Source: Sipunculus nudus (Eukaryota; Annelida; Sipuncula; Golfingiida; Sipunculidae). From it: a DNA stretch of 64,000 bases. Location of the stretch: the NCBI GenBank assembly GCA_026874595.1, contig CM049306.1:76261642-76325641 (forward strand), read 5' to 3'. Positions 1-63,971 of the stretch are shown in pieces (position 1 is the stretch's first letter; the number at the start of each line of letters is the position of its first letter). The position numbers were made by a program, and so were the translations under genes. The notes below the pieces were generated by a model. The model saw only the letters and a list, made by a program, of their open reading frames with translations. It did no database searches and was not told where the DNA came from.

Positions 1-2270
1 TTACAAACATCAATATCCATGCAAAGAATCATGGTGATCTCCCCATTAGTTGTTCAGATACTTCAGCTTTTGTATCAAATTGTCCATTATTCTGAGGGAT
101 ACTTCGGAGTCCTATAGCTTGAAGGATATGGGTAACAGAGACCTAATTTTAAGTTTCCACAGGCACTTTTCATGGGCCTTCTTGCATGACAAGAATGAAG
201 ATTCTAGGTCCAGTTGTTGCGATTTGTACCCTGTTGACAGATAACCACATCTTTAAAGGTATCAAAAAAAAAAGAAAAAAAAAAACGTAAAAATTTGAAA
301 AAAAATAGAGGTGGCGCACCCAGTCTGCAGAAACTGATGGAACAGGTCATGATCAATATGTATGCCGAAAATCATGACCATCAGTGTTGTAGTTATTGAG
401 ATACTGCAGTTTTTGTATCAAATTTTCCATTATTCTGGGGGGTAATTTGGAGCCATACAGCTTCGGGAATATGGGTAACAGAGACCTAATTTCAGGTTTC
501 CATGGAGACTTTTCATGGGTCTCCCTGTGTGTCAAGAATAAAGATTCTAGGTCCAGTTTTAATGATTTGTGCCCTGTTAACAGATGTTCATAACTTTAAA
601 GGTCTCAAAAATAGAGAAAAAATTCGTAAAAAAACCCGAACAAATACAGGTGGTGCCACCAGTCTGCAGAAACTGATGAAACACTCCATGATCAATATCC
701 ATGAAAACAATTATGGTGATCTCTGCATTAGTTGTTCAGATACTTCAGCTTTTGTATCAAATTTTCCATTATTCTGAGCTGTACTTTGGAGTGCCATAGC
801 TCAAAGGATATGGGTAACAGAGACCTAATTTCAGGTGTCCATGGAGACTTATCATGGGTCTCCCTGTGTGTCAACAATGAAGATTCTAGGTCCAGTCCTT
901 ACGATTTGTACCCTGTTGACAGATAACTACATCCTGAAAGGTCTCGAAAATAGAGAAAAAAAAATTGTGAAAATTTGAAAAAATACAGGTGGCACCACCA
1001 GTCTGCAGGTACTGATGAAACACCTCTTGATCAATATGTATGCCAAAAATCATGATCATCAGTGTTGTAGTTATTGAGATGTTGCAGTTTGTTTTTATCA
1101 AATTTTCCATTATTCTGGGGGGTTATTGGGAGCCCCCCATAGCTCAAAGGATATGGGTAACGGAGACCTTATTTCAGGTTTCCATGCAGACTTTTTATGG
1201 ACCTCTCAGTGTGTCAAGAATGAATATTCTAGGTCCAGTCTTTATGATTTGTGCCCTGTTAACAGCTGTTACATTTTTAAATTCGTAACATCTCATGATC
1301 AATACGTATGCCAAAAATCATGACCATCAGTCAAGTAGTTAATGAGATATTGAAGTTTTTGTATGAAATTTTTGACTTTTCTGAGGGGTACTTTGGGGCG
1401 AAGGATATGGGTAACAGAGATCTAATTTATGGTTTCCACGGAGACTTTTAATAGGTTTCTCAGTGTGTCGAGAATGAAGATTCTAGGTCCAGCGGTTACG
1501 ATTTGTGCCACGTTAACAGATGACAGCATCTTTAAACGTCTCAAAAATAGAGGAAAAAATTGTAAAAAAATCGAAAAATACAGGTGGCGCCTCCAGTCTG
1601 CAGGAACTTATGGAACATCTCATGATCAATATGTATGCCAAAAATCATGACCATCAGTGTTGTAGTTATTGAGATATTGAAGTTTTTGTATGAAATTTTT
1701 TACTATTCTGGGGAGTACTTTGGGGCGCCATAGCTCAAAGGATATGGGTAACAGAGACCTAATTTCTGGTTTCCAAAGAGATTTTTCATGGACCTCTCAG
1801 TGTATCAAGAATTAAGATTCTAGGTCTAGGCTTTACGATTTGTGCCTTGTTAACAGATGTTCACATTTTTAAAGGTCTCAAAAATAGAGAAAAAAATTTG
1901 TAAAAAATCGAAAAATACAGGTGGCGCCACCAGTCTGCAGGAAGTGATGGAACATCTCATGATCAATATGTATGCCAAAAATTATGACCATCAGTCAAGT
2001 AGTTAATGAGATATTGAAGTTTTTGTATGAAATTTTTGACTTTTCTGGGGGGTACTTTGGGGCCCCATAGCTCAAAGGATATGGGTAACAGAGACCTAAT
2101 TTCTGGTTTCCAAAGAGATTTTTCATGGACCTCTCAGAATCCTAAGTTACAAGGTTCTAGGTTCAGCGGTTACGATTTGTGCCTGGTTAACGGACGGACA
2201 GACGGACAGACGGACGACGGACAAAGAGTGATCGCTATAGCTCAGATGACTTTCAGTCAGCTGAGCTAAA
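1..2270 (+). repeat. Tandem array of a ~337-bp unit, ending in a hairpin terminus
   Basis: About 6.7 head-to-tail units run from before the window edge. The GGTGGCGCCACC-type core followed by AGTCTGCAG recurs near 311, 650, 986, 1583 and 1920, so the spacing is 336-339 bp. Each unit also carries a 'gatcaatatgtatgcc' block, a 'ccattattctggggggtac' block and an 'atgggtaacagagacctaat' block. One unit near 1275-1290 lacks about 40 bp including the core. The last unit runs into GACGGACAGACGG repeats (about 2190-2225) and ends in an imperfect palindrome, TAGCTCAGATGACT / AGTCAGCTGAGCTA, followed by AAAAA (about 2235-2273). Solo copies of the same family lie near 27738-28316 (+) and 45858-46265 (-). 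The short ORFs in it lack start or codon conservation between units and I do not call them genes. Confidence 0.9.
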
Positions 2271-3060
2271 AACAGGTGGACAGCAGGTGGTGAAATGGAC
2301 TATAGCACAATGTAAATATGTGCGTCAACAGTGGTATCATCAACTATATTATGAACAGAATAATATAGGATAAACTACATGTTTTGTATGTCCTGAAAAT
2401 TAGAATGTTGTATGCCAAGAAGTTACATGGTTAATTGCCTTAAATTAGAACAAAAATATCAAAACGCCTACAGTACATACAGTACATGAACTAATGACAA
2501 AGCTTCTATCTAGTACAATCTAAGCTTGTTGGGAGTAGAATCTATAGTAAAAACTTTTACGCCTATGATCTCAAAATTGCTTGTTTTGAAAAAGCACAAC
2601 TCTCTGTATGAAAATATATATTGGTAAAAGGTCGTCACAGCTTATTATTCAACGCTGTGTATTTTTGTCCCTGTGCACGTGTGCAAGGGTCAGAAATATA
2701 CTAAGGTCATTTACTACAGGTAGGCTATTATATAACAAGAAGTGAAACCTCCGCATGCACCGCGGTTTTAAATACACAGATTGCGTAAGTGTAACTGTAG
2801 TGAAGAGGGTAATGTTATCCATTCAAATATTCTAGAAAAGAATTGTTTCAAGGCAAATTAAATAAACATGAGTTTTTTTAATAGAACCCAAGGATAAGTA
2901 ATAATTTGCAAACATGCGCATGTGAGCTGTAAACAGAGATGTAAAGAGTTTCCTTGAAATGCAACAGAATTTGATTTTAAAGTTTGATAGATGAGACAAG
3001 TAGTCCCGGCCGTCCCACAGTGCCTATCAGGAAATGAGTTTAATTTGTAAGGTGGGGCTT
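2271..3060. other. Spacer downstream of the receptor gene
   Basis: AT-rich sequence between the tandem array and the stop codon of the minus-strand receptor. It would contain that gene's 3' untranslated region. I see no gene, clear repeat or clear polyadenylation signal in it. Confidence 0.5.
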
Positions 3061-6540: not shown

Positions 6541-6549
6541 ACCAGTCTT

Positions 6550-6640
6550 TCCGGGTTGAATGAATGAATGAAAATTTATTCAGGCCTCAGGCCCATAGTT
6601 CCATAAATGCATAAATCATTAATTGAGGGAAAAAAATAAT
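6550..6640 (-). mobile_element. 3' tail of a SINE or LINE, (ATTC)n type
   Basis: On the minus strand the sequence reads GGGCCTGAGGCCTGAATAAA and then runs into ATTCATTCATTC. A short-motif tail of this kind is typical of L2/CR1-type LINEs and the SINEs that borrow their tails. Only the 3' end is recognisable. Confidence 0.45.
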
Positions 6641-7597: not shown

Positions 7598-7599
7598 AT

Positions 7600-8115: not shown

Positions 8116-8219
8116 CTTAAACTTGTTTATTTCTTCTTGTAAATGCATGAAATACAAAAGAAGCCAAGTTATTGATAATGGTAGGATTGGTACTGGACAT
8201 TATGAAGTTTTTTTTTTAT

Positions 8220-8255
8220 AAATGATGAGGGTTTTCTTCTTTTTTTCTCTCCCCC

Positions 8256-8300
<45 letters not shown>

Positions 8301-9922: not shown

Positions 9923-9923
9923 G

Positions 9924-9988: not shown

Positions 9989-9991
<3 letters not shown>

Positions 9992-18444: not shown

Positions 18445-18910
18445 GAAAAATAAGGCCTACAGGCCTAAGGCGAACCTGTGCATTGGGAAATACACCAGGT
18501 ATAATGCTTTAATGCTGGACTATTACTTCTCATGTATATGAACAATGCAAGTACTAAACATTTTGAATAAGAAACAATTACACAAACATCACTGTTGAAA
18601 TTCTGGCATGGGTGCACACAACACAAGAATGATTGTAGCTGGCACCACCAGTCTTGTATACAACGAAGCTATCAGAGATATATACATATTCCCAATTTCA
18701 CACTGATATATCAAACCCCTCCTGAGAAATAAGCACACACACTGTGCAAAATTTATTGTAGGTGGCACCACCAGTCTTGTATAGGACAAAGCTATACGAT
18801 ATGTATAAATATGCCCAATTTCAGGCTGATATATCGAATTCCTCTGTGGAAATAAGCAGGCACATACACTGTGCAAAAGTCATTGTAGGAGGCGACACCT
18901 GTCTTGTGAA
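18445..18910 (+). repeat. Three ~120-bp units with a GGTGGCACCACC-type core
   Basis: The left edge reads 'ggcctacaggcctaaggcga' then ACCTGTGCA, a terminal sequence also present near 25045-25075. Three units follow with cores at about 18645, 18757 and 18888 (the last is ggaggcgacacc). Each continues with 'agtcttgta', 'aagctat' and 'atatatcaaac' blocks. These blocks are shared loosely with the 25.3-26.4 kb array. Confidence 0.75.
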
Positions 18911-19977: not shown

Positions 19978-22900
19978 GAACAAGGGACCCATGGGTCACG
20001 GCGCTCAGCTGATCGTGATTGGACTATAAATGTTTCTCCACTGTGATACTATATCGAGTTGATAAAGCTTATGAATATCATGTACATATTGGGCTATTAT
20101 AAAGGAATGTAATGTAATATGTGAGTAAATGATAAATGAAATTACCTGACTGATGGATTAATAGAGTCAAATAAAGTGGTTTATTTTTTATTTATTTAGG
20201 AGGGGTTGAAAATTGTAGTATATTTGAGCAAATATGAATGCAATGACAGCAGTAATAAGCAGTAGTCGAATGATGATAAGGCTATTTGTTGAAGGATCTA
20301 AAGTGTATGGTAGTCTGCAAGAGTTCAATTTGACAGATATGATGTTATGATTAACTATGCTGATGAAGTGATTTATGAATATGTGACTGTATGACACAAT
20401 ATCTCTTTAGTCTTGACATAAGGTACATTATTGTGATGCCCACTATGTCTACATATTACACAATATTGACATAATTTCTGGCATGTACATAGGTACCTAT
20501 GGACGAATAGTTATACAAAATATTATGAATATATCTGATTCATCTTGTTCTTGCTTACTGAGGCTGACTTTGGGATGGGGTTCGGAGAAGGGAAAAGTGA
20601 GTGCAGCAGGAAGGTGGATGTAGAAATATTCTATTGTAATGTTTTTCATTTATATCAGAATATGAAAAGCTAAGAGGAAAGGGGCCCTCCTACTTGGTTA
20701 TAGTAAAGTTCTAAATATATGATTGCAAACTAATACTCTGACAAGACTGTCATGAAGAAAAACAGTAAAAGTTTTGAGATACTGTGTTGCATACGAAAAT
20801 TTACAGATGGACAGGCAAGTGGAAAGAATGGACAAATACCTTTATTTCACTTTCAAGAGAATAATGCATTTAAGTTTATATATAATCCTATTTTTTAAGC
20901 AGATCCACTTTTTCCATTAAGAAGTTTTTATCTGAATCATTTTTTTATTTACAGGTTTATAAATTTTTAATTAAAAAACCTGAAAATATAAGTTAAAATA
21001 TTAGAATTGTTGCAAAAGTTGCAATCATTATATATACAGAGTAAAAAACATTGGGTCATATTATGCATACACATATATTTTATTATTTTTAAATCATAAT
21101 TGTTTAAACTGATTTTAAAAGAAAATAATGCCACAACATGGCATCTACAAGAATATTCCTTGAATCACTATTAAAAAGTTTTGCACATTGGAGTTTTCAG
21201 TACCTGCTTAATTTTATTCACCAAAATAAAATAAAAGTAAATTTGATAAAATAAAACATCTTTTCAAATAAAGTATACACACTGTTGGTTGAATGAGGGA
21301 CAAACAATATCATTGTGCTAATTACTATTCCAGTTTAAATTAATTACTGGAATTAATAGTCAATTTCACACCTGGTGAAGTTTTTACTCTTCTGAAGTAA
21401 GGAATTACTTATCTAATGAACATCCATACTTTAACAGCAATACACCACTTTGTGGACACAATTAAATGTACACTTTAATCATTGTAACCCTGGTGGTTCA
21501 ATACAAAATCTTAAATGTAGCATGTCCAAGAATAAAATAAAATACAGAAAAATTATAACATTCATCTAGTTTATGCACCAGCTGGGGGGGGGGATGAGTG
21601 CAGGGCAGAGGGGAAGCCTGCTAGAAGTGGCCAAGCTGGGCCAAGGTAAGCTGCCTGGGGTGGGTTACATAATGCAAGTGAAGGCTGTACTACTAGGTGG
21701 GCTAGATGTAAACAACACTTGACATGGTGTATGAAAACATGAATAAAAGCTTTTCATTCCAATCAATTTCTTTTGAAAGTTCAGATTTTGAAAGATTAAA
21801 TCCTTATGCATATATGCTGGGAAAATTAAATCAACAGTGCCAAAGTTGGACAGAATTTAAGGTATTGATTTTTCATTTATGCTAATAACTTGAAAAATTT
21901 GCAAAATTCAGATCTAATTTTGGGTAAACAATTGAATCTTGATTAAATAAAGTTATATTCCTGAAAAAAAGTCTCTAGGTTCAGCAATTCTCATGTGAGT
22001 TAATATATTTCCTGATTTTTTAAAAAATTGCATTATGTTTTGGCCCATAACTTCAAAATAATACCCAATACTAACCTAATTTTTGGTATGTTCATAGAAA
22101 ATTTATAAAAGAATGTGAATACTAAATATGATCAAAAACAGATCAGTGGTTTTGATATTAGGCAGCCTTGAAGTGTAACAATGGCTTTTTTTATGGAAAA
22201 CGGAGTTTTTTTCCTTAATATCTCGAAGGAACAAAGTCCTAATGACCCAATTTTCGGTATGGTAGGAGATTTTGGGGACATCTAAAATTATGTCAACAGC
22301 CTGGGGAGCATAGAGATGTGCACTGAATGACCTACAGTCATCAAAGTGGACTGCTTGACAATGTAAGGGAATACAACAAGAGCCTCCAAAAAAATTCAAT
22401 AACTAGCCAAATTTTGCAGCTTTTATTTTCAAAATTTCAGATTTTAACAGATTAAATCCTTATGTATACATGGTGTGAAAATTATATCCACAGTACTTAC
22501 AGGAAAAAAACGTGCCATGGCCAAAGTTGGGCAAAATTTAAGGTACCAATTTTATATTTTTGCCATTATTTATAAAAATTTAACAAATTTTAATCTAATT
22601 TTTGGTATACAATTAAATTTTGATTAATTTAAGTTGTATTACTGGAAAAAAGTCCCTACCTTTAACACTTTTGGTCTTAAGTGACCAAATATCTTCCTGA
22701 TTTTTTTACAAAGTCCATTATGTTTGGGCCCATAACTTTTTTAAATTATATAATACTGACTTAATATCTGGCATGTACATAGGAACTATATAGAGGAATA
22801 TTTATGGTAGATATGAAGAAAACCAGATGAGTGGTTTTGATATTAGGCGGTCCTGAAGTGTAAAAATAGATTTCTAATAAAAAATTGAGGTTTTTCCTTA

Positions 22901-23116
22901 ATATCTCAAAGGAACAAAGTCCTATTGACCCAATTTTTGGCATGGTAGGAGATTATAGGGACATCTAACTGTATGCCGAAATTCAGATTCGTAGGTCCAA
23001 CGGTGTCAAAACGTGCCAGTCTTACAGACGGACATCCAGACGGACGGACGGACGGACGGACAACGGACAATGGACCATGACTATAGCTCAGATGACTTAT
23101 AGTCAGCTGAGCTAAA
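19978..23116 (+). mobile_element. Possible long element bounded by GACCCATGGGTC and TCAGCTGAGCTAAAAA ends
   Basis: The left end reads 'acaagggacccatgggtca' then CGGCGCTCAGCTGA. The right end (about 23077-23116) reads 'tatagctcagatgac', then 'gtcagctgagctaaaaat', the same terminus as in the 1-2270 array. The smaller element at 27738-28316 has the same pair of ends. Between the ends lie about 1.8 kb of plain AT-rich DNA and a duplicated 0.65-kb unit. That these two ends belong to one insertion is inference. Confidence 0.5.
21774..23065 (+). repeat. Tandem duplication of a ~650-bp unit ending in (GACG)n
   Basis: 'agattaaatccttatg' at about 21795 and 22450, 'agtggttttgatattaggc' at 22146 and 22826, and 'ggaacaaagtcctaatgacc / ggaacaaagtcctattgacc' at 22228 and 22911 mark two units about 655-680 bp apart. 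Only the second unit runs on into GACGGACGGACGG (about 23036-23062). Confidence 0.8.
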
Positions 23117-23204: not shown

Positions 23205-25041
23205 GTCAATGTAGGTGGCACCACAAAATCTGCAACTTCAAACATGAGTCATGTGACCAACACTTGCACAATACCTGGTAATGCTAGCTTCTGTCATTTG
23301 AGATTACTATGTCAGTATGCTTACTTGGCCAAATGACTGTTCAAATTCGTGAAACTCCACTAAAATTCATCAAATGCAAACCTTTGAACAAACTTGAGAG
23401 GGCTTGCCTCTGGGATCATTTCTGTAAAATATTGAACAATTTGGCTTGACCATTTACAAGAAGAAGACTTAAAGGTTTTTTTAGCTTTTTCTCTATAAAA
23501 TCTAAGAAAATGCAGAGTTTTTCAGATGGCTTATTTTTTTGCCTTAAATTTCATTTTGCTAGCTCCAGTTGTTTTCGAAATAGTATGGGTTAACATACAG
23601 ACGACGGACGCCACCACACCATCTCATTAGCTCACAGGTTCGCTAAAAATACTACAGATGCATACTGAATGCAAAATTATAATACAGATACATCTCACTA
23701 ATGGCAAAATCTTGAATTAAGTTGATTATGGATACCAATTATTTATAATCCATGTACAGCTGTCTTTATATACCCACAGAGAGCTGTATACCTGTGATTG
23801 TAAACATTGGCTGGCATGAGGAATATCTAAAATCATGAGGAATATCTAAAATCATAAATCTACAATTTTTAAAAGCTTAAAAAAACAATCTTTATTTATC
23901 AATATTAACCATAGATAACCTGAAATCTAAATGTTTAGAGGAATGAACTAACAGATGCTGATCAACTGGTGCCAGGCTAGATGTATCTGCTTGACACAGC
24001 TAACATATATGGTAAAATGACTCAATTCAATCTTTATAATTCAACCAAAAATTCATTCTTTGGAACCATAAAAGACAATTATTTTTGGAATTATTCAGGG
24101 GATTATTCTTGTAAAATATTAAACGAATTGGCCTCAGTGGCGTCAGCCAAAAAAGGTCTGGCAATTTTATAACTCATATGGGAAAATACAGCAAAATGGC
24201 TAAGTTAAGCTTCCCAAAACTCACCCAAAAATCACTGAACCAAAACCATTTGAACAAACTTGAATTATCAACATCTAAGGATAATTAATGTGTGAGATTT
24301 GAAAATTTGGCCTAGTGGTTTTTGAGAAGAAGATCTTTGTAGCCATTGAGCTAAAATGGGCTGTTGTGGCATATGACTAAATTCAGCTTCCCATAATTCA
24401 GCCAAAAGTCACTGAACTGAGACCATTTGAACAAACTTCAGAAAGCACTACCCTAGGATCATTTCTGTGCAATATTAAACAATTTGGCCATATGGATTCA
24501 AAGAAGAAGTTTTTTGTAGCTGTCTGTATAATACAGGCACTGATGACCCATGTACCAAATGTCCCGAAGCAGGTGGCGCCACCAATACCTCAATTTCAGA
24601 TATGGCTCATGTGCCCAACATTGGCATAAAATTTGGTGATGATAGCTCCAGCCGTTTCTGAGATTGTAATTTTAGTATGCTTTTTTTGACAGATGACTGA
24701 GTTCAACTTCCTGTAACTCAGCCAAAAATCACCGAACTTAAACCATTCAAACAAACTTGAGAGAGATTGTTCCAGGAATCATTTCTGCGAAATATTTGAC
24801 AATTTGGCTAAACAGTTTTGGAGAAGAAGATTTTAAAGTTTTTTTTAGCTTTTTCCCTATAAAATCTAATAAAATACAGTTAGCCAAAATATAAGCAAAA
24901 TCGGATAGAGTTTTTTAGATGACTAATTTTTTGCATAAAATTTTGTGATGCTTACTCTTGCCATTTTCAAGATAGAATGGGTTAACGTACAGACGACGGA
25001 CGACAGACGACGCCACACCATCGCATAAGCTCACAGGTTCT
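23205..25041 (+). repeat. Mosaic of dispersed repeat units with a GGTGGC(A/G)CCACC core
   Basis: Copies starting at about 23211 and 24570 share the core, 'gatagctccagccgtttctg', 'aaaccattcaaacaaacttg', 'agaagaagatttt', 'agctttttctctataaaatc' and an ending of ACGACGGACG then 'cataagctcacaggttc'. Partial units of the same 'ccatttgaacaaactt ... gagaagaag' type fill 24030-24530. A third full copy lies at 26780-27293. Confidence 0.8.
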
Positions 25042-25080: not shown

Positions 25081-25329
25081 TTTAGAAGTATGAATGGAGG
25101 TTTATTTTAAAAATTTAATATTGATCCTCCTAAGTCCTGCATATCTACCTTAGTCATTATGATTTCAGCAAAATGGACGTTTCTGACCTGCAAGTTTCGG
25201 ACTAGGACATTTTAAAACCAGAATATGGGTAGTCAACAAGCCACTATGTGTATCCCCAGAAATCAGAGTGGGACGGGTGAAGTGAAGCATGGATTAAGTG
25301 GCAAGGGGAATAGAGCGTGATGTGTTGCA

Positions 25330-26450
25330 TATTAGCATGGATGTCTGCAGAGTAAACGTGAATGTAGGTGGCGCCACCTGTCACAAAATCGAGAAAGCTG
25401 TCAAGAATGTATAAACCTGCAAAATTTCAGGTGGATAAGTCAAACCACTGCTGAGATATGTGATTTGATCCCAAGGCAGATGAACAGATGGAATCTGTGC
25501 AAAAATTGTCGCAGGTGGCGCCACCAGTTTTACCTATGTTGAAGAGCTATGTTAGATCTATACAGATGCAAAATTTTGGCCCAATCGGTCAAACGGTTCC
25601 CGAGATATGAGCTTGGATGTCTACAGAGTAAATGTGATTGTAGGTGGCGCCACCTGTCATAAAATGGAGAAAGCTGTCCATGATGTATAAATCTGCAAAA
25701 TTTCAGGTGGATAAGTCAAACCACTGCTGAGATATGAGTGATTTGATCCAAAGGCAGATGAACAGATGGACCCTGTGCATTAATGGTTGCTGTTGGCGCC
25801 ACCAGTTTTGCCTATGATGAAGAGCTATGTGAGATCTATACACATGCAAAATTTTGGCCCAATCGGTCAAACAGTTCCCGAGATATGAGCTTGGATGTCT
25901 GCAGAGTAAATGCGAATGTAGGTGGCGCCACCTGTCATAAATCAAGAAGGCTGTCCAGGATGTATAAACCTGCAAAATTTCAGGTGGAAAAGTCAAACCA
26001 CTGCTGAGATATGAGTGATTTTATCCAAAGGCAGATCAACAGATGGACGCTGTGCATAAGTGGTTGCACGTGGCGCCACCAGTTTTGCCTATGATGAAGA
26101 GCTATGTAAGATCTATACACACGCAAAATTTTGGCCCAATCAGTCAAACAGTTCCTGAGATATGAGCTTGGATGTCTGCAGAGTAAATGTGAATGTAGGT
26201 GGCGCCACCTTTCATAAAATCGAGAAAGCTGTCAAGGCTGCAAAATTTCAGGTGGATAAGTCAAACCACTGCTGAGATATGAGTAATATTATCCAAAGGC
26301 AGATGAACAGATGGACGCTGTGCAAAAATGGTTGCAGGTGGTGCCACCATTTTTAGTGTATGTTATAAAGCTATCAAAGGGCTACATTTGTGCAAAAATT
26401 TTTAGCCTGATCGGTCAAACAGTTCCCGAGATATGTGGGTTTATGTGTGG
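25330..26450 (+). repeat. Tandem array of a ~278-bp dimeric unit, two palindromic cores per unit
   Basis: Cores lie near 25370, 25515, 25644, 25794, 25922, 26068, 26200 and 26336. They alternate between two contexts. Type A is GGTGGCGCCACC then TGTCATAAAAT, 'gagaaagctgtc' and 'gcaaaatttcaggtggataa'. Type B is the core then AGTTTTGCCTATGATGAAG, 'agatctatacacatgc' and 'ggcccaatcggtcaaac'. The A-to-A spacing is about 274-280 bp, so this is a dimeric higher-order repeat of about four copies. Confidence 0.88.
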
Positions 26451-26779
26451 AAACAGACGCAAAAATGGACGCTGGGCAGCAAGGAAAGGTCAGAGTGATG
26501 GTGATGTCTGGACCCCACCTGTTTGTACTGAGTGACCTCTTGACTTGGCTGCTGAAACTCAGTATGAAGTCAAATCTGTTTTCAAATACAGAAAGCCTTT
26601 TTCAATTGGCTACAATGCTTTTTTAAAACTGTATTTACCCAATCTATTCTTATAAAACTGGCAGAACCCTACCATAGAATAAATCTTGTAAAGTTTAAAC
26701 CAATCAGCTGAACAGTTTCATCATAAATCAGTGTATTAGCTAGAAGAGTTTAAAATTACGTTTTCGCTTGTAAAAAACA

Positions 26780-27293
26780 CATCAATGTAGGTGGCACCAC
26801 CAATACCTCAAAATCAGATATGACATATGTGACAAACATTAGTGTAAAATTTGGTCATTATAGCTCTAGCCGTTTCTGAGATTTTAATTTTAGTGTGCTT
26901 TTTTGGACAGATGACTAAGTTCCACCTCCTGTAACTTGGCAAAAAATCTCCGAACTAGAACCATTTGAACAAACTTGAGAGAGATTGTTCCAGGGATCAT
27001 TTCTGTGAAATATTGGACAATTTGGCTGGACAGTTTCAGAGAAGAAGATTTTTAAAGGTTTTTAAGCTTTTTCTCTATAAAATCTAAATTAATGCAGATA
27101 CCCAATAATAAGCTCCAGGGCACCAAGTTTCACATGTGACGAATTCTTACATGTAATTTGGAGCTGCTAGCCCCAACAGTTTCTGACTTACAGCCATTGA
27201 CGGCAGAAAGCCAGCCCTGGACGGCGGACGGCGGACGGCTGACGACGGACGGACGACGCTGCGCCATCGAATAAGCTCACAGGTTCGCTAAAA
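26780..27293 (+). repeat. Further copy of the 23.2/24.6-kb repeat family
   Basis: Starts at GTAGGTGGCACCACCAATAC and has the same internal blocks. It ends in a GGACGGCGGACGG run (27215-27255) and 'aataagctcacaggttcgct' AAAAAT. Confidence 0.85.
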
Positions 27294-27737: not shown

Positions 27738-28316
27738 AACAAGTGACCCGTGGGTCATGAAGCTCGGCCGACTGACATGTTGATAATATGTCCTTGCACA
27801 GACAACTAATTAAGATAATATAGGTGACACCATTGTTCATGCATATTAGCTTAAGTTCATCAAGACCCATAAGCACAACAAATCTGATGACAATCCAACC
27901 AGCCTTTCATGAGGAATCTGGCAATTTGTGTGTATTTTGCATTATTTCTGGGGTGTTCAAACATATTCCAAAACTCTGAGAATATTGGTCACTGTGACCC
28001 AATTTCAGGTTTCTGGGGAGAACTTTTGAGGAACTCTCAGGATGTCAAGTTAGAAGATTTTGGGCCCCATGGTTATGATTTGTGCCTCCTTTGGTATATA
28101 ATTTTCAATTATTCTCGGGGGTACTTTGGAGCTCCATAGCTTGTAGAATATGGGTAACAGAAACCTTATTCTAGGTTTTTAAGGAGACATTTCAGGGACC
28201 TATCTGGATGTAAAGTAAGAAGATTCCAGATCCAGTGGTTACGATTTGTGCCCTGTTAACAGATGACCGCATCTTTTAATATCTAAAATACAGACTCACA
28301 GTCAGCTGAGCTAAAG
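27738..28316 (+). mobile_element. Short complete-looking element, GACCCGTGGGTC left end and GTCAGCTGAGCTAAA right end
   Basis: The left end 'acaagtgacccgtgggtca' TGAAGCTCGG parallels that at 19978. The right end is 'acagtcagctgagctaaa'. The interior has one and a half units of the 1-2270 family ('atgggtaacagaaacctt', 'ggttacgatttgtgccc', 'gttaacagatgaccgcatct'). It shows the family in near-minimal form. Confidence 0.65.
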
Positions 28317-31910: not shown

Positions 31911-32565
31911 CTGCAAAAAAGAAAAACAAAGCTGAACAAATCTAAATTAAGCAGTGTCAGAGATGCAGAATGGATCCAATGCAGTTTGGGGTCAGCCATA
32001 TATTGATTTCCAAATCTAATTTATTCACTGCATGGTCAATAACATGAAAATGATTATTAACAAGGATAACAGTTTGAAGCCGAAGCTGTACTTTAGTCTG
32101 TTCTACACTGGGATGCCAATTTAAATAATGTAATGTTTTCCTCAAGTGACAGATTAATTCCTAATGGTATGCTGCAATGAAGGAATGGAGCATACAGACC
32201 TTTAGCCAGATTTAATCTGACTCGAACATACGGAGTGCTATAGCCATACAGGGAGAGTTTCTACAATGTAAGCCTCGGAACATGCAACAGATGAGTTGCA
32301 TCTTCTTTGACTGCCAAACAATTTAAACCATTTTAACACCAATAAGTATGTGTTTCATGGTTTCGATAGCAACTAAAATAAACTTGGATCATCATTTTTA
32401 AACATTAAATGACCTTTTTACAATAGGCATGTCAGTGAGTTTAGTAGGACAGTTGAATAGGCGCACTTAAAGACCTCACTGGGAGCCTCGCTGACTCAAG
32501 TGATTGACAGCCAGAATTTTGTTACATTTTGTTTCAATGGGCCCAGCTCTGAAAAGTGACATGCT

Positions 32566-38116: not shown

Positions 38117-41100
38117 TTTCAGCTGTTATTAACAGCCAGGAGACGAATTCTGGTAAATAAATTGCTTATTTTAAGTTAATTCTGGGTTTTTCTTAGCATC
38201 AGAAAATATTTAAGGGGCTTAGGTTGTAAAAATCTGCTAAATAAGTGATCTATTCAAATAGAAACATAGTAACAGCTTTAAAAATGCCTGAGTTTCATTT
38301 CTTAAGGGAAATTATTTTATTTAGTGCATTTATTACGTGAACCAGAATAGGAGCTTTTTATAAATGTATAGGCCCATCTCTGTTTAAAGAACAATGCGCA
38401 TTATTTTATTTGGAAAGGCTAGTACTACTTTAGATTACTATTGACAAACCATTATAGTAATTTGACCTCCTTGGCTATCAAGCGGCGTATACATTATAAA
38501 ACAGTGTATACTTCAAAAATCAGCTGCAAAATTCAAAATCATTGGTAGGTGTACAGTAATCCCACAGTATTGATCCTTTTATTTGTACAATTTACAGTAA
38601 ATACTACGGTTATTGGGAATTTTCATTGTGGATAAACCAGTCATATTAGTTTTACATTCTTATAAAATGAAAGCCGTAATATCATTATATTTCTAATTAC
38701 CTCAGTCCTTGTTTGAAATTAAATCCCTCAGTGTTACACTTGAATTGCGTGTTCTCACTAGGTTATAGAACAAAAATAATAAAAAAGTGTATAATAATTA
38801 TTTATATACAAAAATGTGTGACTTTATAAGATGTAAAAGCAAGAGAAATAACAGGTGCTGTATGTACCATTATGTGATGTGTGAAAAAACTGTGACACGC
38901 ATCTTCTTATTACATTGGGCATAAGCTTAATCCGCAAATATTTAATGCCCCCATGTAAACATGCAGCCAGGCAACTTGTGCCTGCAATTGTATATATGTA
39001 ATATTTTACTTATAATAAATGACCTCTTCTTTGCAAAAATTAATATTCAGTTTATCAGATATTTTGTGTATAAAAACTTTCAGGGCTTGTTCTCAATTAG
39101 CTTAATAATTTTGAAATATAGTGACTGCTCAAATTTTATTATGCGTAGCTGTCTCTTGAATAATTGTAACATAGCTTTTATTTTGTAAATATGTATAGAT
39201 ACTGTTTTACTTGTGAATGTACTTTGTTAGAAACATTAGTTAATACTTGATTAAAGTCTAAACTGGATAATGAATAAAGAGTTTATATGCTCCTCTGCCA
39301 AATTTAGAATTGTATTGTATAAACCCTAAAGTGTGTAATCTTATGTGATTCTTGTGTAGAGAAGTATAACATACATGCTATTTTTTAAAACAAGGCTGTA
39401 ATTAATTTACCTTTAATAGCGGTTTCAAAAACCTGTGCACATGTAATTCAAAGGAACGACCGTTTGACCACATGTAACGAGGGTCACAAGTTATTGCATG
39501 ATAACAGCTGTGTTTCTGGTCCTTACAGTTCTGATAAACCTGGGGTTTAGATTTGGTTTCTATAATATTGGCAAAACCAAAAGGCCATGCCCAAGGGCTA
39601 TTGCATCACAAAGGGCTGAACACATATCACCCCCATGCAGGTGTCAGAGTCATCCGTTGTCACAGGGCCTACCTGTCATTTTATTTATTACTCAGTAAGG
39701 CTCAACAAACTGGACACCAACCCCTTAATCCCTTACTTAAACCGTGACTTAACCCCTGTGCCCCATATAGGGTTATATAACATCCCATGAGGCTGATATT
39801 TCAAACAGGCCAGCACTGATTATCTTAATACCACCTGCAGGTACTTATGTTAAGCGGATTATACACCTGGTCACAAAGTCATGTGAATGTATCATCACCT
39901 TGTATATCAAACATGTAGACTTCAGTTTTTTTATTTTGCTCTAAATAATTGTATTAATATTAATAATTATACTTATAAAATGTGACGTCAATATAACTTC
40001 ATTAGTCGGGCCTATTGATCTGTGGGTCTCTCAACATACCAAATTTATGCAAGCTATAGAGTTATGGTGTTTATGGTTTGCCTTTAGGTAATCTTAATTA
40101 CTTGTTACAATTATTATGAATTCTGATGTTTAAAATATAACAACTTAAACAGATCAGTACTTAATAATTTAGATCAATCTTTTAAATAGATATTTAGTAA
40201 TTCTCAGAGGATTACCTCTGAGGCATGCTCATATTTTATATACACTTTGACTAAATTCATTTGTTGATTTTTGACCAAGGAAAAACTGCATTTAATTTTA
40301 ATACAGTTGTAGACTATTAACTCAAAGTTATTTAAACTTTTCACAAACCATTACTTTTTAATTACATTTTAATTATAACATTTTATTCTAAAATAAAACT
40401 TTTACAAACCTAGTTCATCCCAATTAAAGTGTTTAACACATATCTCTACAAAATTAGACAAATGTACAAAAAAAATGGTATTATACTTAAAATTTAATTA
40501 AAAGCATTTTATTCTGCCTCACATACTGCTGGACTAGATATGCATGAGTATTACTTTGAATTTCTCTGGTGAAATTAACTACCTATAGGCTGGATGTAAC
40601 TTGTCTGACACACCTTGAAGGTCTTTTATTGGTATTCTATTTGCCTAGATCTCAGCATCTGGCATAGTACCATTTATTCTGCCTCAACTTTGAGAGTTTT
40701 ACTAGTCGCTTTTTAGGGTTCTCATCCCGGCATAGTATGTGCTTTTCCTGGTTGAGTTTTTTTAGGTTAGCATATAAGGGCATAAAATATATACCAGTTG
40801 CCTTGGGTGATACCCGACGTGGTTGTCCCTTCTATGCAGTGTTTTGTGCTGGCAAAGTTCCCAGTCGCTTTTTAGGAGATGTTCTCCGGCATGGAAACAA
40901 TTTTTGCCAAGTGTATGTGGTGTCTGACATGGCTGCATGTCTGCCTTGTGGGTTTTGCATATCGCCTAGAGAGTTCTCGATTTTGGCAGGGTACCTTTCA
41001 CCTAGAGTATTTTGTATCTGGTATGGTGGCGCCACTTGCATAGGATTCTACCTGTCATCATATCTAAACCTAGCTATAGCATCAAACAGCACAAATTTGT

Positions 41101-43289
41101 CTGTCTTAAGTATTGGGAGTAATTAAAATAAATTAGAACAGTGTGCATACTTGACACACCAGTTAAAATGACATCGCTCATTAAGAAGCTTAACTTGTTT
41201 AATTAGGTTAATTTCATTGAAATCCTAACAATAATATTAATAGGTGAGCAACACACCAAAATACTAAATAAGTTGAGTACATACATGAATAAAATGAATA
41301 AATAAAGCTAAGTTCAGGGTCATGTCCACAAGCTATATTGCATTTGAGATTAATGATATCTAATATAAATAACAAATCACATATACACTGTTGTGTTGGG
41401 GTGAACATTTTTTTTTGTCACCAAAATACATATTTCACTGTGGATTCGAGTAAATTAATATTTAGGATGATGTATAAATGTATAAACTACAAACTAAGTT
41501 AACTATTACACATAATCTGAATCTACAGAGCTTCATGAAAAATAAATAAACAATGATAAAACTCAGAATGATGATAATGTTGATGATAAAATAATGATGT
41601 ATAAAAATATAAACAGTAAACTGTAAATGCTAGAAATAGATTAAAGAAGAACTAATTATTCAAATAAACTAATGAATAGGTAACTAACCCTGATATCTAA
41701 TTTGAATGTCATATTTACATATACTTGTAGGGTTATAAACAACTCTGATTTAACAAATTCTTGGGCAGCGCTGCTTTCCATTTTCCCTAAATTAAAGTCA
41801 TGTATAGGTGTTGTATATTACAGGTAGACTTTCTTTACCTGACTAAAACAACTGTGCAGTCGTTGAATTATCTGAAAGTATTATTTCATGTATTACTATA
41901 CTTAATTTCACCTGTAATAATATAAGGTGATCTTACATTTAGCGAGAAATCTCGCTGATACCTGATTATTATTACTTGGTCAGTTGTAGTTCGTATTTTA
42001 TCCCAGTGAGAGGGCATGTTTCGGCCGAGCGGGGCTTAAAATACCGTCTATATTTTGAGGCCAAACAGGGCACAGAATAAATACTGTTTATAAAAAGCTT
42101 ACCCGAGGGTAATGCATAAACTTCCTAACACTGATCAGATGATGATGCAGTGTGCGAGTGAATCTCGCTGTATTAGTAGACTAGTGGTCGAAATATTAAT
42201 TAACCCAGTGAGGGGGCATGTTTCAGCCAGACGGGGCTTCAAATGAATACCGTTACAGTTGTGAGGCCAGACACTGCACAAAGAAAATACTGTCCTTTTA
42301 ATCTGGTTACTTTTGCCCACCTTGCGTCTTTGGGCTATACACGGGTTGAGGACCATAGTTACCCCTAGTTTTATATACTCCATATAAAACGGAGAAATGA
42401 GCCCAGATTATGCCTATTAGAGGGTCCCTTTATGTAACCGTTGTCAATTTTATTTAATAATGTATAGTTGAAAACTTAGATCAAGTGTTTAACTGTTTTA
42501 ATGTTTTACCAAGGGGCCGCTTATCAGTCTTCTTTATGTTTGATTATGTATAATTTTTTATGAGAGCTATTTTTAAAATAGTCATGTCTAGGTAATTGTC
42601 GCAGAAATTATACTTGTGTCATATACTGCCGATACAGATACTGCCGCTCTTGTATTTTATTTTCAGAGGCTCCATTTTCGCATGAACCAGATGTCAGCCA
42701 TCAGTGCAGCCTTCCCAGTGTGGTCCGGCTCAGCTCTTCTGCTACAGCAAGCTGCAACCTGAGCCAACATTCCACTACAGCCAGATATTGGACGCTTTAA
42801 TAAATGCAGAACACCTTGAGTAAATACTGAGGCCTGTGGCGCCACCATCTGGACTTATATTTTATTAAACCCTATATGGCCACCTGGCTCACTAATGGAC
42901 TGTAACATGTAACAACTTATTGTACCTGGTGCATGTTGAATATCATTGATGTGTCTTTGAATGTTTTATATTGTTTTTGAATCTCCAATAAAAATTACAC
43001 AATCCCTGAACTTTCAAAACAACTATCAGACTGCAAAGTCCCTAATCACTGGAGGTACTGTGTGGGGAGAGAACACTCCCTACCCGCTGTTGTAGCATTG
43101 GATAAACCTACCTCCCCCCTCCCACCATGGGAGTTAGGGGTTGGGTAGCCGGCTAACAGCGTATACACAGCCTGCCAGCCATGTTTTGGCCATATAACAA
43201 ACAAACAAACAAAAGGTCCTCCTCTCCAAAGGCTAGATATTATGACTGCTATAGCAAAATTTTCCACTGTAGTGTAAAATTTTCCCTAT
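38117..43289 (+). other. Non-coding interior of the LTR element
   Basis: AT-rich and without conserved coding motifs. It contains degenerate internal repeats: 'agtcgctttttagg' at about 40705 and 40862 with surrounding 'cctagag...ctggcat' phrases, and a ~190-bp duplication at about 41940-42130 and 42155-42300 ('gggcatgtttcggccgagcg' / 'gggcatgtttcagccagacg', both followed by GGGGCTT). GGTGGCGCCAC(T/C) cores occur near 41025 and 42837. Confidence 0.7.
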
Positions 43290-45857: not shown

Positions 45858-46265
45858 TTTTTAGCTCAGCTGACTGAAAGTTAACTCATGTGTAGGGATG
45901 GCGCTTTGTCCGTTGCCCGTCCGGCCGTCTGGCCGTCCGTTAGCAGGGCACAAATCGTAACCGCTAACCCTAGAAACTTGTAAATGAATACTCAGGTAGG
46001 TTGACAAAATGAAAATCTCCTTGGAAACCTGAATTTGGGTAACTGCGACCTTTTTCCTCCGAGACAGGGGGCTCGCAAAGAAACCCCCTTGAGAATAATT
46101 AAAATTTTATACAAAACCTCAAGTATCTTGATAATTAATGCATGGATTGCCATGAATCTTGCCTTGAATATTGAACATGTCTAATCTTGTCAGTTCCCCT
46201 AAAACTGGTGGCGCCACCTGAATTTTTATCTAATTTTTACGATTTTTCTGCTGTTTTTAGACCAT
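45858..46265 (-). repeat. Solo copy of the 337-bp array family, minus strand
   Basis: Read on the minus strand: TTCAGGTGGCGCCACCAGTT, then blocks matching the array ('caggtttccaaggagatttt', 'agcggttacgatttgtgccc', 'taacggacggccagacgg'), then 'actttcagtcagctgagct' AAAA. It shows the unit as an isolated insert with the same hairpin end and A-run. Confidence 0.85.
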
Positions 46266-51317: not shown

Positions 51318-53549
51318 TATCTGAGGTTTCAATCCAAAGCTAGCGTGTTTATTGTCTGATATCACCGACAGCCTCATCCGACTTCACCTCCCGGGTTTTC
51401 GGGCCGGTTCATTCTTGTATTTTTTAATGACTCACTCGGGAGCATACAGCCCAAGCAGCCACAGTAGGCGTCATGGGGGTTTTCCTTTTACTTTTGACTC
51501 CCATAACTGGTATCAAACTTTTACTTCCCTAAGGTGAAGAAGGACACCCCTGTGGTTAAGGCCTTAACCAGGAGTCTAAGCAGGTGGACATGTCTTTCCG
51601 TCAAAGTTCCGGAGTGATTTTATTATATGATAAGCTATTCCACTTAACATAGATTGCACAGATAGTTATTTTATCTGTTCCAGGCACTCTCCATGGCTCA
51701 GGTGGTGGCGTTCGGTAGTGTCAGCATGTGGAGGAAACCGGAGAACCTGGTGAAAACTACCGTGATAATCACACGCCTACACTCAGCATGCGTCAATTTT
51801 GAAATCGAGAGTGATACCAGTCGACGCAACTTTTTTGTAGCCACGCCTTGAATATGCCCGTTTTTGGCCCTAAACTGTCGGGAATGATGCCAAGTATGTC
51901 TTAAGGGGGTTATCCGTATATTCCCGTGAATCCTGAGATATGTGACATGTTTCGCGAAGGAGTTATTGCAGCACCATCTGTCAGGGACTTTAGGAACTAC
52001 GCAAGAGCGGGTAATCCGCTAGTATTTAATAAAACAAGATCTGGTAGAGGCACATGGGGGCAGATGAATATATGTTGTAATGCCTAGCTTAAACAATGCT
52101 CTCGCAGAACCTTCATGCGGGACTTACCTATATGACCGTTGTTATCTTTGTCGAATACTTTGAAAATTTTCCTGATCTCATCCTCAGTATCTGATCTGTT
52201 TCTCTTCTTCATTAATAGTACAAATTGTTTGAAACTAATTGTCTTCTTTCCTGTAAAAAATGCAGGTACATTTATTTATATACAAATATAAATCATCTGA
52301 TAAAAAAAAACAGAATTTAATGGGTTTTTTTTTTACTTTCTGAAATATCCGAAAAAGATGGAATATAGAGGCACAGCAAAAAGCATTCTTGATTAATGTT
52401 TAAGAGTGGATGGAAATACGGGACCTCATTCCCTTTCCTGATCGGGAAAAGTGAAGAGGCACGAATTACTATGCCATTTTAGTTTATTTATAACATCTGC
52501 TTATTATATATGTCTGTTTATTCCGTATTATATTTTTATATGTAAGCATGTTTTTGTATGTAAATTGTTGGAATGGGGCATTATTTTAAATAATAACTTG
52601 CAAATCAAGAAGTGTGGAATCGATTCAGTTCCATCTCAAATCTTGTATCGAAAACGAAATAATATATGACATTAAAAAATTATAAATTCCTCACATTACA
52701 GAGATGCCACAGTATGCCCAATCTTAGGCGAAGGGCATATAATCGCACGAGAGTACAGTTCACGCCAGACGGTGACCCCGGGGCACCTCCTCAGAAACGC
52801 AAGAATATGTCATTTGGGGGACTCCGGACGAATATTAGGATTTGCTAAAAAATATTTATATTTTTCGTTATGGAAGGCAGTATATATTTAAGGATAAAAT
52901 TTAAAATATATTTAATACAAATTGAAAAAAAAATTATAAATTAAAAATAGAATAAGATGACTGTTATCAGTAATAACATATACACTACATGATTCCATTT
53001 ATTTTTCACTCAAAATATATGATCTCATCCTTTTAATGACAAATTAAGGAAGTTTTGGGGTGTGTTTGACTTCTTAAGTGTTATGCTGATAAATATTATT
53101 ACCAAGCTACACGGGACTTCTGGGAACTATTAAGGTTCTCCGGGGCACCGTCTGGCGTGCACATTACTCTCGTACGGCATAACACCCCTCCTCCCCCTCG
53201 CCCCCCCCCCCCCACCCCTCCAACCCAGCCCCCACCTTAAATGAAAATGTCAGAAATGACACTTTAACTCCCTTCTGCATTTTTTTAGACATCCCTCTGT
53301 CGGTTTTTAAGCCATAATGTATACTTAGTATTGCTCAAATGTTGTTTAATGATGGGGAGATACACAACTACAACGGAAAAATACGTGCAGGTGGCGCCAA
53401 AGGTTTTGCTGACAAGATCAAGCTTCTTTGGTCATGCAAAATTTGTAGACAATCCATCTGCATGTTCCCTCCCATGATATCTAATGTTTGTAAAGAATTC
53501 AATATGAAAGTCACATTTATATTACAGGTCATGCCATTTAACCATATTT

Positions 53550-55954: not shown

Positions 55955-56008
<54 letters not shown>

Positions 56009-59440: not shown

Positions 59441-59454
59441 TTGTTCAGGGGAAA

Positions 59455-59530
59455 ACATTGGGCCGATCCGGGATTCGAACCCATAACGGTGGCGCACCAT
59501 TCCGGCGTATAGTTGTGCCATTTGATAACT
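59455..59530 (-). mobile_element. tRNA-like fragment with a B box (SINE or tRNA fossil)
   Basis: The minus strand reads ATGGGTTCGAATCCCGGATC, a classic T-arm / B box, after GGTGCGCCACCG. No 5' acceptor half pairs with the 3' side (ATCGGCCC), so it is not a working tRNA gene. Internal promoter remnants of a SINE fit best. Confidence 0.4.
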
Positions 59531-60590: not shown

Positions 60591-60608
60591 TAGCGCCACC
60601 TGGTGTTC
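60591..60608 (+). promoter_or_regulatory. CTCF-like site just upstream of the DEK_C gene start
   Basis: TAGCGCCACCTGGTGTTC resembles the reverse-orientation CTCF core (TAGCGCCCCCTGGTGGC) at about 15 of 17 positions. It lies 30 bp before the ATG and so probably in the promoter or 5' untranslated region. The assignment rests on consensus resemblance only. Confidence 0.4.
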
Positions 60609-60637
60609 GTCTGGGACAACAAGAGACCATCACAATC

Positions 60638-60680
60638 ATGGCGACACTTAGGGAGAGCGAACTAAGGAAGGCTATAGCCA
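60638..60680 (+). CDS. DEK_C gene, coding exon 1
   Basis: ATG at 60638; 14 codons and one base; 5' splice site AGCCA/GTACGT. Encodes MATLRESELRKAIA. Confidence 0.82.
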
Positions 60681-62130: not shown

Positions 62131-62526
62131 GTAGGTTTACATATCCCAGTTTATAGATGTTCCAGCAATGTGTCTCTCTTAACATCTCAACACCTAGCAG
62201 GGTCGGGGTCATATACAGTATGCCAAATACAAATATAAATACAAGAGCTGTTCTCTTCCAAATACAAATACAGGTGGGTGAAGTTAAAAATACAGAACAA
62301 AAAAAACAAATACAGAACATCAAATACAAATACGCAGATGTTGGTTATACAGAATATTTATTAATTTCAATGAGCACAGTGACTAAGCAGTTAATTATCC
62401 AGGCACATTTGTGATTGCAAACGTCAGGAAGAAGTGAAACACTGAACCTGATGCTGCCTTTTGGGTTGTTCAAACGTTTGGTAGTAGTTAAATTTTCAAA
62501 ATTATGGCAGATATTAATAATTATTG
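62131..62526 (+). other. Start of intron 3 of the DEK_C gene
   Basis: Contains an AAATACAAATACA-type simple repeat (about 62220-62340) and no exon. Confidence 0.5.
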
Positions 62527-63971
62527 TATCGCCAGACATAGTCTGGAGATACTATGGTTTAGGCACGTTTGCGCCGCCGCCGCAGAGATTTCTTTTGGAC
62601 ACAATAACTCAAAAAATATTTCAAGGATCTTTTTCAAACTTGACACATTTATAGATATAGGTGAGAGGACGAAGCCTATTTAAAATGGGGTCATGACCTC
62701 AACTAGGAGAGTGACCTTGACTTTGAATAGATCCATTTTTGGGGAAAATCACACAAATTCTTAAATATCTCAAAAAAACTTTCATTGATTTATCCAAAAA
62801 TCAAGTTGGACAAAGATCTTGGATAGTGATGTCATGTACCGGAAACTGGTGGTGCCACCTAGTATCCTTTTCTTGTTTTTGTGCCGTTTAATACCCCCAT
62901 CATTGCCACTTGACAGTACTTTTAGCATCACAAGTCAAAAACTGATTGACAGATTTCTTTAATATTATGCATGTACATAGGTATGGGTTATGGGATGATG
63001 TATATTAAAATTGGGGTCATGACCTTTCCTTTGAGAGTGGCTTTGACCTTGAATATTACCATATATGGTGAAAATCACATAAAATCATGAATATCTTAAA
63101 AAGGGATGCATGGATTGGTCCAAAAATCAAGTTGACGGAAGATCTTGGATAGTTTTGTCTTTTGCAGAAGATAGGTGGCGCCACCTGTTGTCCTTTTCTT
63201 GTTTTTTGCGCCTTTGAATACCCCATCATTGCCACTTGACAGTATATACTGTGAGCATTATAAGTCAAACAGTAATGGACAGATTTCTTTCATGTTATGC
63301 ATGTATATAGATATGGTTTATTGAATGAGGTATATTTAATTTTAAATTTAATTTTAAAATTTAATTTTATTTAAATTATTTTTTTTTAAATTTAATTTTT
63401 TTTTTCAAATGTTGGATATTTTGGAATGCAGTTTATTGATTTGGGGTCATGACCGTGACTATGAGAGTGACCTTGACCTTGAATATTCCCATATTTGGTG
63501 AAAAACATAAAATCATGAATATCTTAAAAAAGGGCCACTTGACAGCACTGTGAGCATTATCAGTCAAAAACTACTGGACAGATTTCTTTTATATTATGCA
63601 TATACATAGATTTGGATTATGGGATGAGATATATTTAAATTTGGGTCCTGACCTTGCATATGAGAGTGGACTTGACTTTAAATACTCATATATGGTAAAA
63701 ATCACCAACAATCATGAAAATCTCCAGTGAACCTGGGAGATTGCTTCAGCTAGTGGTCTGCACATGGTGTTGCATCATGTTTTGCCCAAACATCAGCAGT
63801 TCTGGCCATGGTCAGATTCTATAAATAGATATGATGGTCAGTGATAAATGAATTAGTGCACTGGGTGTACCACAGAGTCACAACTGGATCATTTTCCTTT
63901 GAGAGTGGTCTTGACCTTTGGACGACAAAACCTCATTTGTCTGGCGATACTATGGCACCAGCGGTGCGATA
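62527..63971 (+). mobile_element. Tandem-unit element with TATCGCCAGACA terminal inverted repeats
   Basis: The left end TATCGCCAGACATAGTCTGG and the right end TTTGTCTGGCGATACTATGG (about 63935-63955, then 'caccagcggtgcgata' AAAAAAA) are inverted partners over about 12 bp. Both ends contain small hairpins. Inside are about four imperfect 320-bp units with 'gggtcatgacctt', 'gagagtgaccttgacctt', 'atcatgaatatctt' and 'ggtggcgccacctgttgtcc' blocks. The palindromic core lies at 62849 and 63175 and is lost from later units. No coding capacity. Confidence 0.75.

What the first reader, a model, noticed from the sequence alone, without database searches (positions are those of the whole stretch)
311..63190. 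One 12-bp palindrome, GGTGGCGCCACC, recurs across otherwise unrelated repeat families
Exact or near-exact copies lie near 311, 650, 986, 1583, 1920, 18645, 18757, 23214, 24573, 25370, 25515, 25644, 25794, 25922, 26068, 26200, 26336, 26791, 41025, 42837, 46209, 53391, 62849 and 63175. In the 337-bp array, the 278-bp array (two per unit), the dispersed 23/24/26-kb family and the 62.5-kb element the flanking sequence differs, but each unit keeps about one core, often followed by AG(T/TTT). A 12-mer should not appear this often by chance in AT-rich DNA. It could be a conserved protein-binding site, a replication or transposition signal, or a recombination hotspot that lets families exchange units.
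Basis: partly seen in the sequence, partly recalled or inferred. Interest (0 to 1): 0.8.

Follow-up and report, generated by a model that had tools for sequence, protein, structure and literature searches.

The report
One palindrome shared by transposon repeats
A 12-letter mirror-image DNA word occurs over 111,000 times in this animal genome, mostly it seems because it sits in an old repeat unit carried by mobile elements, and it has stayed the same while the surrounding DNA changed, which suggests that some protein reads it.

Summary
The window has 25 copies of GGTGGCGCCACC within 2 mismatches (0.39 expected), including all 24 sites listed. The genome (1.43 Gb) has 111,729 exact copies against about 11 expected; the reversed control word has 14.

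The families are not unrelated. They are diverged versions of one module: core, 76 bp, GAGATAT, with an A/T tract near +44. Genome-wide, 27,865 cores have GAGAT exactly 76 bp away, versus on average 115 at each spacing from 55 to 70. The modules lie in non-autonomous Helentron-type (HINE) elements, singly or in short arrays.

The core is the best-kept part between families: all six consensuses are exact, and G/C-matched divergence is lower in the core than in flanks in all six. In the 278-bp family, however, the exact core is kept no better than an average stretch. Both halves are equally conserved. I found no RNA fold, no shared reading frame, no array junction within 3 bp of the core, and little sign of flank swapping.

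Best reading: a site for a symmetric DNA-binding protein, kept in propagating element lineages. The protein is unknown. New variant of a known kind: conserved boxes in divergent satellite monomers.

The parts
47..2191 (+). 337-bp tandem array, five cores (310, 649, 988, 1583, 1920); family F3 of the module, module on +; belongs to a HINE reading on the minus strand
   Evidence: TRF rows 47-1265 and 1287-2191; cores; family F3
2194..2267 (-). HINE left end: subterminal repeat AGCTCAGCTGAC, its inverted partner, then a GTCY microsatellite; first cores 336 and 673 bp downstream in the element
18632..18907 (+). 123-bp tandem array with cores at 18638, 18761, 18888 (two of them with two mismatches); upstream flank clusters with that of the 278-bp family
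19980..23113 (-). core-less HINE (left end at 23113; right end with CAGCTGAGC and the palindrome TGACCCATGGGTC starting at 19998; 3,115 bp between the two)
23214..23225 (.). degenerate core (2 mismatches) of an F5-like module, in a fragment with an LF-C left end at 23641 (minus)
24572..24583 (.). exact core of family F5, 457 bp from the LF-C left end at 25040 (minus strand)
25200..27289 (-). composite LF-C HINE: left end 27286, F5 core 26790, 278-bp array, exit flank F6 and a short hairpin-like end near 25240 (the last two limits read by eye)
25329..26435 (+). 278-bp array, two half-units of 149 and 129 bp, one core each (25367, 25514, 25643, 25792, 25921, 26069, 26198, 26337)
   Evidence: TRF; unit consensus
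26790..26801 (.). core (1 mismatch, CpG-decayed) of family F5, module on +
45863..46218 (+). HINE left end (LF-A) with an exact core 344 bp downstream at 46207; module antisense to the element
53390..53480 (+). probably a degenerate single module (2-mismatch core, ATGCAAAATTT and GATATC retained; read by eye)
62680..63336 (-). 326-bp array with cores at 62848 and 63174; family F9, module on minus
41025..41036 (.). core-like word (1 mismatch) without the module by eye; used as a control
42835..42846 (.). core-like word (1 mismatch) without the module by eye; used as a control

Best explanation
GGTGGCGCCACC is the best-conserved box of an ancient, highly diverged satellite-like module: mostly TGYA, then the core, about 44 bp, an A/T tract, then GAGATAT starting 76 bp after the core. 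The module is carried in single copies or short tandem arrays inside non-autonomous Helentron (HINE) rolling-circle elements, so element amplification made the copy number (shown for anatomy in the sample and for counts; copying by the HINE route is inferred from structure). Individual genomic copies decay, yet each of six family consensuses keeps the exact palindrome. The most likely cause is selection on the element lineages that propagate: the core would be the recognition site of a protein that binds as a symmetric dimer, with the second box as a co-site at a set distance, helping the element to be copied or to persist (inferred). The protein, host or element encoded, is not known.
For: Copy number and control: 111,729 vs 14. 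Spacing: GGTGGCGCCACC-N76-GAGAT 13,966+13,899 = 27,865 in the genome (control 0) vs 1,844 over the 16 spacings 55-70; GAGATAT-like word at +76 in 5 of 6 family consensuses, +74 in the sixth. Homology of flanks at exact register, 15 representatives, 0 of 1000 rotations; 12 flanks of 6 non-module control sites show no peak. Conservation: consensus core exact in 6 of 6 families; G/C-matched non-CpG divergence core vs flank .050/.127.047/.157.092/.266.117/.209, 0/.101.100/.152; single-family p below 0.05 in 4 of 6, combined p 1.3e-6 with columns and families treated as independent; by CpG-tolerant exact 12-column windows the core ranks 1 of 119 (F3), 1 of 103 (F5), 4 of 126 (F8), 12 of 132 (F9). 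Symmetry: 25 mismatches in the left half, 28 in the right, in 114 copies. Decay of copies: 46,316 of 158,045 GGTGGYRCCACC sites have lost the CpG. HINE anatomy: 6 of 6 LF-C and 3 of 13 LF-A left ends have their own core 200-700 bp downstream, module antisense in each; right ends with CAGCTGAGC and a palindrome. Uninterrupted Helitron-like frames up to 2,426 aa. No RNA fold (24 folds) and no frame open in all 12 representatives.
Against: 10 of 13 LF-A left ends have no core of their own within 200-700 bp (9 with none, and one whose core belongs to a nested LF-C element), and LF-C-type modules in L013 and L020 lack it (by eye), so the core is not needed for mobility in general. In the 278-bp family the exact core is no better kept than an average flank window (rank 74 of 137 and 105 of 135; CpG-tolerant 21 and 30), and in raw identity about half of the flank columns do as well as the core in most families. 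With TG/CA columns also excluded, p is below 0.05 in only 2 of 6 families. One Helitron-like locus examined, of 143 matches, shows neither the core nor these ends in the 10 kb fetched around it. No binding protein is identified. Families were first found by their core, so the between-family exactness is partly ascertained; only searches did not select by it, and the exact core word itself is level with some element-end words.
Confidence: 0.5

Rival explanations
1. Plain common descent without present function: the module is one old repeat, and the core is merely the slowest-changing or best-remembered part of it.
For: Families are homologous; within the 278-bp family the core is close to flank level.
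Against: G/C-matched core columns diverge less than flank columns in 6 of 6 families; in F3, F5 and F8 the core is the top or nearly the top window; downstream flanks are at about 30-60% pairwise identity while all six consensuses keep 12 of 12.
Confidence: 0.25
2. CTCF-like insulator site: one strand reads YAGGTGGCGC, close to the bilaterian CTCF core as recalled, so the elements may carry CTCF sites.
For: The base before the core is nearly always A and the one before it mostly a pyrimidine; a review reports CTCF sites at domain borders in a cephalopod (PMC10658181, passages). The CTCF motif itself is recalled, not from a call.
Against: Both halves of the palindrome are equally conserved (25 vs 28 mismatches), which an asymmetric site does not ask for; the CCAC part upstream is not seen in the representatives (by eye).
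Confidence: 0.1
3. Recombination or array-building signal at which units join and families exchange flanks, as proposed for nematode satellite boxes and for the phBglII400 palindrome of a clam.
For: Precedents PMC3694981 (abstract and section 13 read) and PMC5139131 (passages). F0, F3 and F5 each occur with two or three upstream flank clusters.
Against: 0 of 17 array ends fall in the core +-3 bp (2.2 expected): 10 lie 32-38 bp before the core start, 4 lie 17-28 bp after it, the others at -10, -8 and +70; several are copies of one ancestral junction, so the independent number is small. Across the core, 89 of 92 cores with both flanks clustered keep family partners; 3 are ambiguous, and 25 with a singleton flank were set aside.
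Confidence: 0.08
4. Hairpin, cruciform or RNA signal: the palindrome works by folding of single-stranded DNA or RNA, for example at a rolling-circle terminus or in a ribozyme.
For: A 12-bp perfect palindrome inside rolling-circle elements; HINEs do have a 3' palindrome.
Against: 24 folds of 12 representatives give z between -1.1 and +0.9 with RNA parameters; the consensus fold is only a 4-bp stem in the core; flanking bases do not regularly extend the stem (by eye); no Rfam match in the window or at low threshold in 22.9-27.4 kb; the right ends seen carry another palindrome. That none of 23 two-mismatch cores is a compensated palindrome says little, since 0.7 were expected.
Confidence: 0.05

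Closest known systems
Cg_HINE elements of Crassostrea gigas (PMC7492417)
   Same: Left end with subterminal inverted repeat, complementary repeat and GTCY microsatellite; short central arrays of satellite-like repeats; right end with subterminal repeat and palindrome; some repeat families share two conserved segments while the rest is dissimilar (passages and sections 6-7 read).
   Different: The sections read give no letters of the shared segments and report no palindrome kept across repeat families; here modules can also lie as single copies.
BIV160/Cg170 satellite family of bivalves (PMC5139131)
   Same: Monomers that share two well-conserved motifs despite divergence; repeats of the pearl-type element CvA are related to them (passages).
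   Different: Its sequence could not be obtained here; whether either motif is GGTGGCGCCACC or GAGATAT is not tested.
Box 1 (CENP-B box-like) and Box 2 of Meloidogyne satellites (PMC3694981)
   Same: A short box kept nearly intact between satellites that are 32-64% identical otherwise (abstract and section 13).
   Different: Another sequence, 17 bp long and not called a palindrome in what I read; monomer junctions fall at the box, which is not seen here.
DINE-1/HINE non-autonomous Helentrons (PMC4067079)
   Same: Subterminal inverted repeats, 3' palindrome, microsatellite and central repeats, T-rich insertion sites (passages).
   Different: No conserved internal palindrome in the central repeats is described in the passages read.

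Membership tests
HINE (non-autonomous Helentron) | 5' subterminal inverted repeat with a nearby complementary repeat | tested here: met
   AGCTCAGCTGAC ... AGTCATCTGAGCT at LF-A left ends; the LF-C partner repeat was not worked out
HINE (non-autonomous Helentron) | Microsatellite in the left end | tested here: met
   13 LF-A and 6 LF-C left ends with at least 4 GTCY units in 140 bp; matches to the end motifs with fewer units were dropped, among them at least two with a core at about 335 bp (L015, L022:2462)
HINE (non-autonomous Helentron) | 3' subterminal repeat followed by a palindrome | tested here: met
   11 right ends found with up to 4 mismatches to TGACCCATAGGTCCCTTGT, 8 with exact CAGCTGAGC just upstream; only one (L010) is paired with an LF-A left end that has its own core; for LF-C elements the 3' end was only read by eye
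HINE (non-autonomous Helentron) | Insertion in T-rich sequence, no target duplication | tested here: inconclusive
   11 of 13 LF-A and 6 of 6 LF-C left ends follow at least 4 T (counted from the listing); duplications not tested
HINE (non-autonomous Helentron) | Autonomous Helentron partner with the same ends | tested here: inconclusive
   143 PF14214 matches (a lower bound), frames up to 2,426 aa; surroundings of one examined, no shared ends
BIV160/Cg170 satellite family | Sequence similarity to the BIV160 consensus and its two motifs | not testable with these tools
   No consensus letters in the texts seen; supplements could not be read
CTCF binding site | Asymmetric motif with the CCAC part | tested here: inconclusive
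   Upstream bases are mostly TGYA or TACA, and conservation is symmetric; the motif is recalled and that of this species is unknown
Self-cleaving ribozyme repeat | Match to an Rfam ribozyme family | tested here: not met
   0 matches in the window at gathering scores, 0 at E up to 2 in 22.9-27.4 kb

The most novel reading that the evidence does not exclude
Several long-separated rolling-circle element lineages keep one two-site module (palindrome plus GAGATAT 76 bp away) because the same dimeric host or element protein must bind it, so that transposition has sown over 110,000 identical binding sites, one per 13 kb, for a single factor through an animal genome.
Probability: 0.2. Interest if true: 0.75.

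Novelty: new variant of a known kind. Interest (0 to 1): 0.5.

Why it matters
As far as I know it is open why HINEs carry satellite-like repeats at all. A single short site kept through deep divergence of those repeats, with a partner box at a set distance, turns that into a testable question: which protein binds it, and does it help the element copy itself or persist. If a host factor does, these elements have put a very large number of identical sites across the chromosomes.

Tried and rejected
Cross-species copies: GGTGGCGCCACCN{74,78}GAGAT in viral contigs gave 51 stretches, none with the module by eye; a pattern that also asks for AAATTT gave 0 in viral contigs and 6 bacterial contigs in genome contigs, which I did not examine further. 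So no relative outside this genome was found in what was searched.

RNA structure, reading frame and ribozyme: negative. Core as array junction: negative. Exchange of flanks at the core: largely negative. Core as the element's 3' terminator palindrome: not supported, the right ends found carry another palindrome.

Autonomous partner: one of 143 Helitron_like_N matches looked at; 6 kb on its 5' side and 4 kb on its 3' side fetched (about 3.3 kb between not seen), no core, no shared end, no similarity to the sample. Scripts failed (index error; lost column marks) and were replaced. A genome-wide exact-core fraction by fixed flanks and the genome-wide one-mismatch count did not complete. Literature: the 12-mer occurs in one unrelated paper; GTGGCGCC with 'satellite DNA' in two unrelated ones; the Donax MITE paper is not held. 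That this palindrome is not in print rests only, which search main texts of open papers, not figures or supplements.
Full report
What was checked. GGTGGCGCCACC occurs 25 times with at most two mismatches in the window (0.39 expected), including all 24 listed sites within 7 bp. In the window's own genome (1,426,538,692 bases in 153 contigs) the exact 12-mer occurs 111,729 times; the reversed letters occur 14 times, and a Markov expectation is 10.9. With the central CpG allowed to decay (GGTGGYRCCACC) there are 158,045 sites against 106 for the control. I worked on a sample of the window plus 24 loci of 10 kb at round coordinates (304 kb); eight 3-kb loci were left out. The sample is richer than the genome: 41 exact cores in the first 200 kb, where the genome average would give about 16.

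Tests that do not choose by the core. Of 645 non-simple 12-mers with at least 8 occurrences in the sample, I counted how many different flank clusters each has. The seven with the most varied contexts (7 to 9 clusters) all overlap the core or its CpG-decayed form; at 5 clusters the exact core is joined by ends of the mobile elements and a few other words. Starting from the second box, 64 of 123 anchors have a core with at most two mismatches at the expected place, against 31 of 3000 random places.

The families share a hidden module. The 118 cores with at most two mismatches have 235 usable flanks, which fall into 17 clusters and 39 singletons. Aligned without gaps from the core, 15 representatives (consensus or single copy) share 34.6% of 95 downstream bases and 37.6% of 40 upstream bases, against 26-30% at other registers; 0 of 1000 rotations reach this, and 12 flanks of 6 core-like sites without a module show no such peak. 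GAGAT piles up at +76 (36 of 131 occurrences in 236 flanks of 200 bp) and +74 (21). In the whole genome GGTGGCGCCACC-N76-GAGAT occurs 27,865 times, and the first 100 places listed include at least eight flank types (by eye); the 16 spacings 55-70 together give 1,844, many of them modules with deletions (by eye in the 100 listed). Across 20 representatives the most informative positions are TGTA before the core, G and T at the second and third place after it, A at +45 and GAG at +76.

Where the module lies. Left ends with a subterminal repeat, its partner and a GTCY microsatellite, and right ends with CAGCTGAGC and a TGACCCATGGGTC palindrome, mark HINE elements, as described for oyster Cg_HINE (PMC7492417, sections 6 and 7). 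Of left ends with at least four GTCY units, 6 of 6 LF-C have a core 455-485 bp downstream; 4 of 13 LF-A have one within 200-700 bp, of which one (L022, 687 bp) belongs to a nested LF-C element; the module is antisense to the element in each. In several LF-C elements a 278-bp array of two half-units follows. The exact LF-C 26-mer occurs 3,479 times. The genome has at least 143 Helitron_like_N matches, seven of them in uninterrupted frames of over 2,200 codons; the surroundings of one show neither these ends nor cores. The six main module families cover 13,009 of the 240,000 sampled bases outside the window.

Conservation. Six families were searched with the core masked; 117 copies span it, 49 with the exact core and 8 with more than two mismatches. 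Raw core identity is only slightly above the flank mean (for example .933 vs .899), and about half of the flank columns do as well in five of six families. But the core is G/C-rich with a CpG: against non-CpG G/C flank columns, core divergence is lower in 6 of 6 families (p below 0.05 in four; combined p 1.3e-6, columns and families taken as independent). With TG/CA columns excluded too, p is below 0.05 in two of six. As exact, CpG-tolerant 12-column windows the core ranks 1 of 119, 1 of 103, 4 of 126 and 12 of 132 in F3, F5, F8 and F9, but 21 of 137 and 30 of 135 in the two halves of the 278-bp family, and without CpG tolerance 74 of 137 and 105 of 135 there. All six consensuses are exact. 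The central CpG is intact in 72 of 114 copies (three copies with more than four mismatches dropped) and flank CpGs in 163 of 296, so single copies do decay. At least two LF-C-type modules lack the core (by eye).

Mechanism. Shown: one old module, a set spacing, element carriage, and a core that outlasts its flanks between families. Not supported by the tests made: RNA or single-strand fold and shared reading frame, Rfam family, array junction, exchange at the core, element terminus. Inferred: decay of single copies together with an exact consensus in each family suggests that selection acts on propagating copies, and equal conservation of both halves (25 and 28 mismatches) points to a symmetric binder. 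Against this, many HINEs lack the core, so it can be a help but not a requirement.

Comparison. The nearest precedent is the CENP-B-box-like Box 1 in nematode satellites that are 32-64% identical (PMC3694981, abstract and section 13), where junctions fall at the box; here that is not seen. Bivalve BIV160/Cg170 repeats share two conserved motifs (PMC5139131, passages), which may be this module, but no sequence was at hand. I therefore call it a new variant of a known kind.

Noticed in passing
window 3061-5454 (-): Open frame of 797 aa with somatomedin-B and secretin-type 7TM domains, apparently intronless.
   Followed up: no
window 30115-31929 (-): Tandem C2H2 zinc-finger open frame of 604 aa with 12 zf-C2H2 stretches.
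   Followed up: no
L018:1698, L023:4783, L029:2294: Three of the six core-like sites used as controls contain GATGGCGCCA, which resembles a CTCF-type core as recalled; numbers are too small to judge.
   Followed up: no
window 27757-28312 (-): A compact HINE of about 555 bp from left to right end, without core.
   Followed up: partly
window 24196-24520: 177-bp tandem repeats inside an LF-C region with AATTTGGCC and GAGAT words but no core; possibly a core-less relative of the module.
   Followed up: partly
L009-L028: Other widely dispersed 12-mers, such as GGTCAAGGTCAC and CTGTGACCTTGA, occur in 7 and 6 of 20 loci and may mark another repeat family.
   Followed up: no
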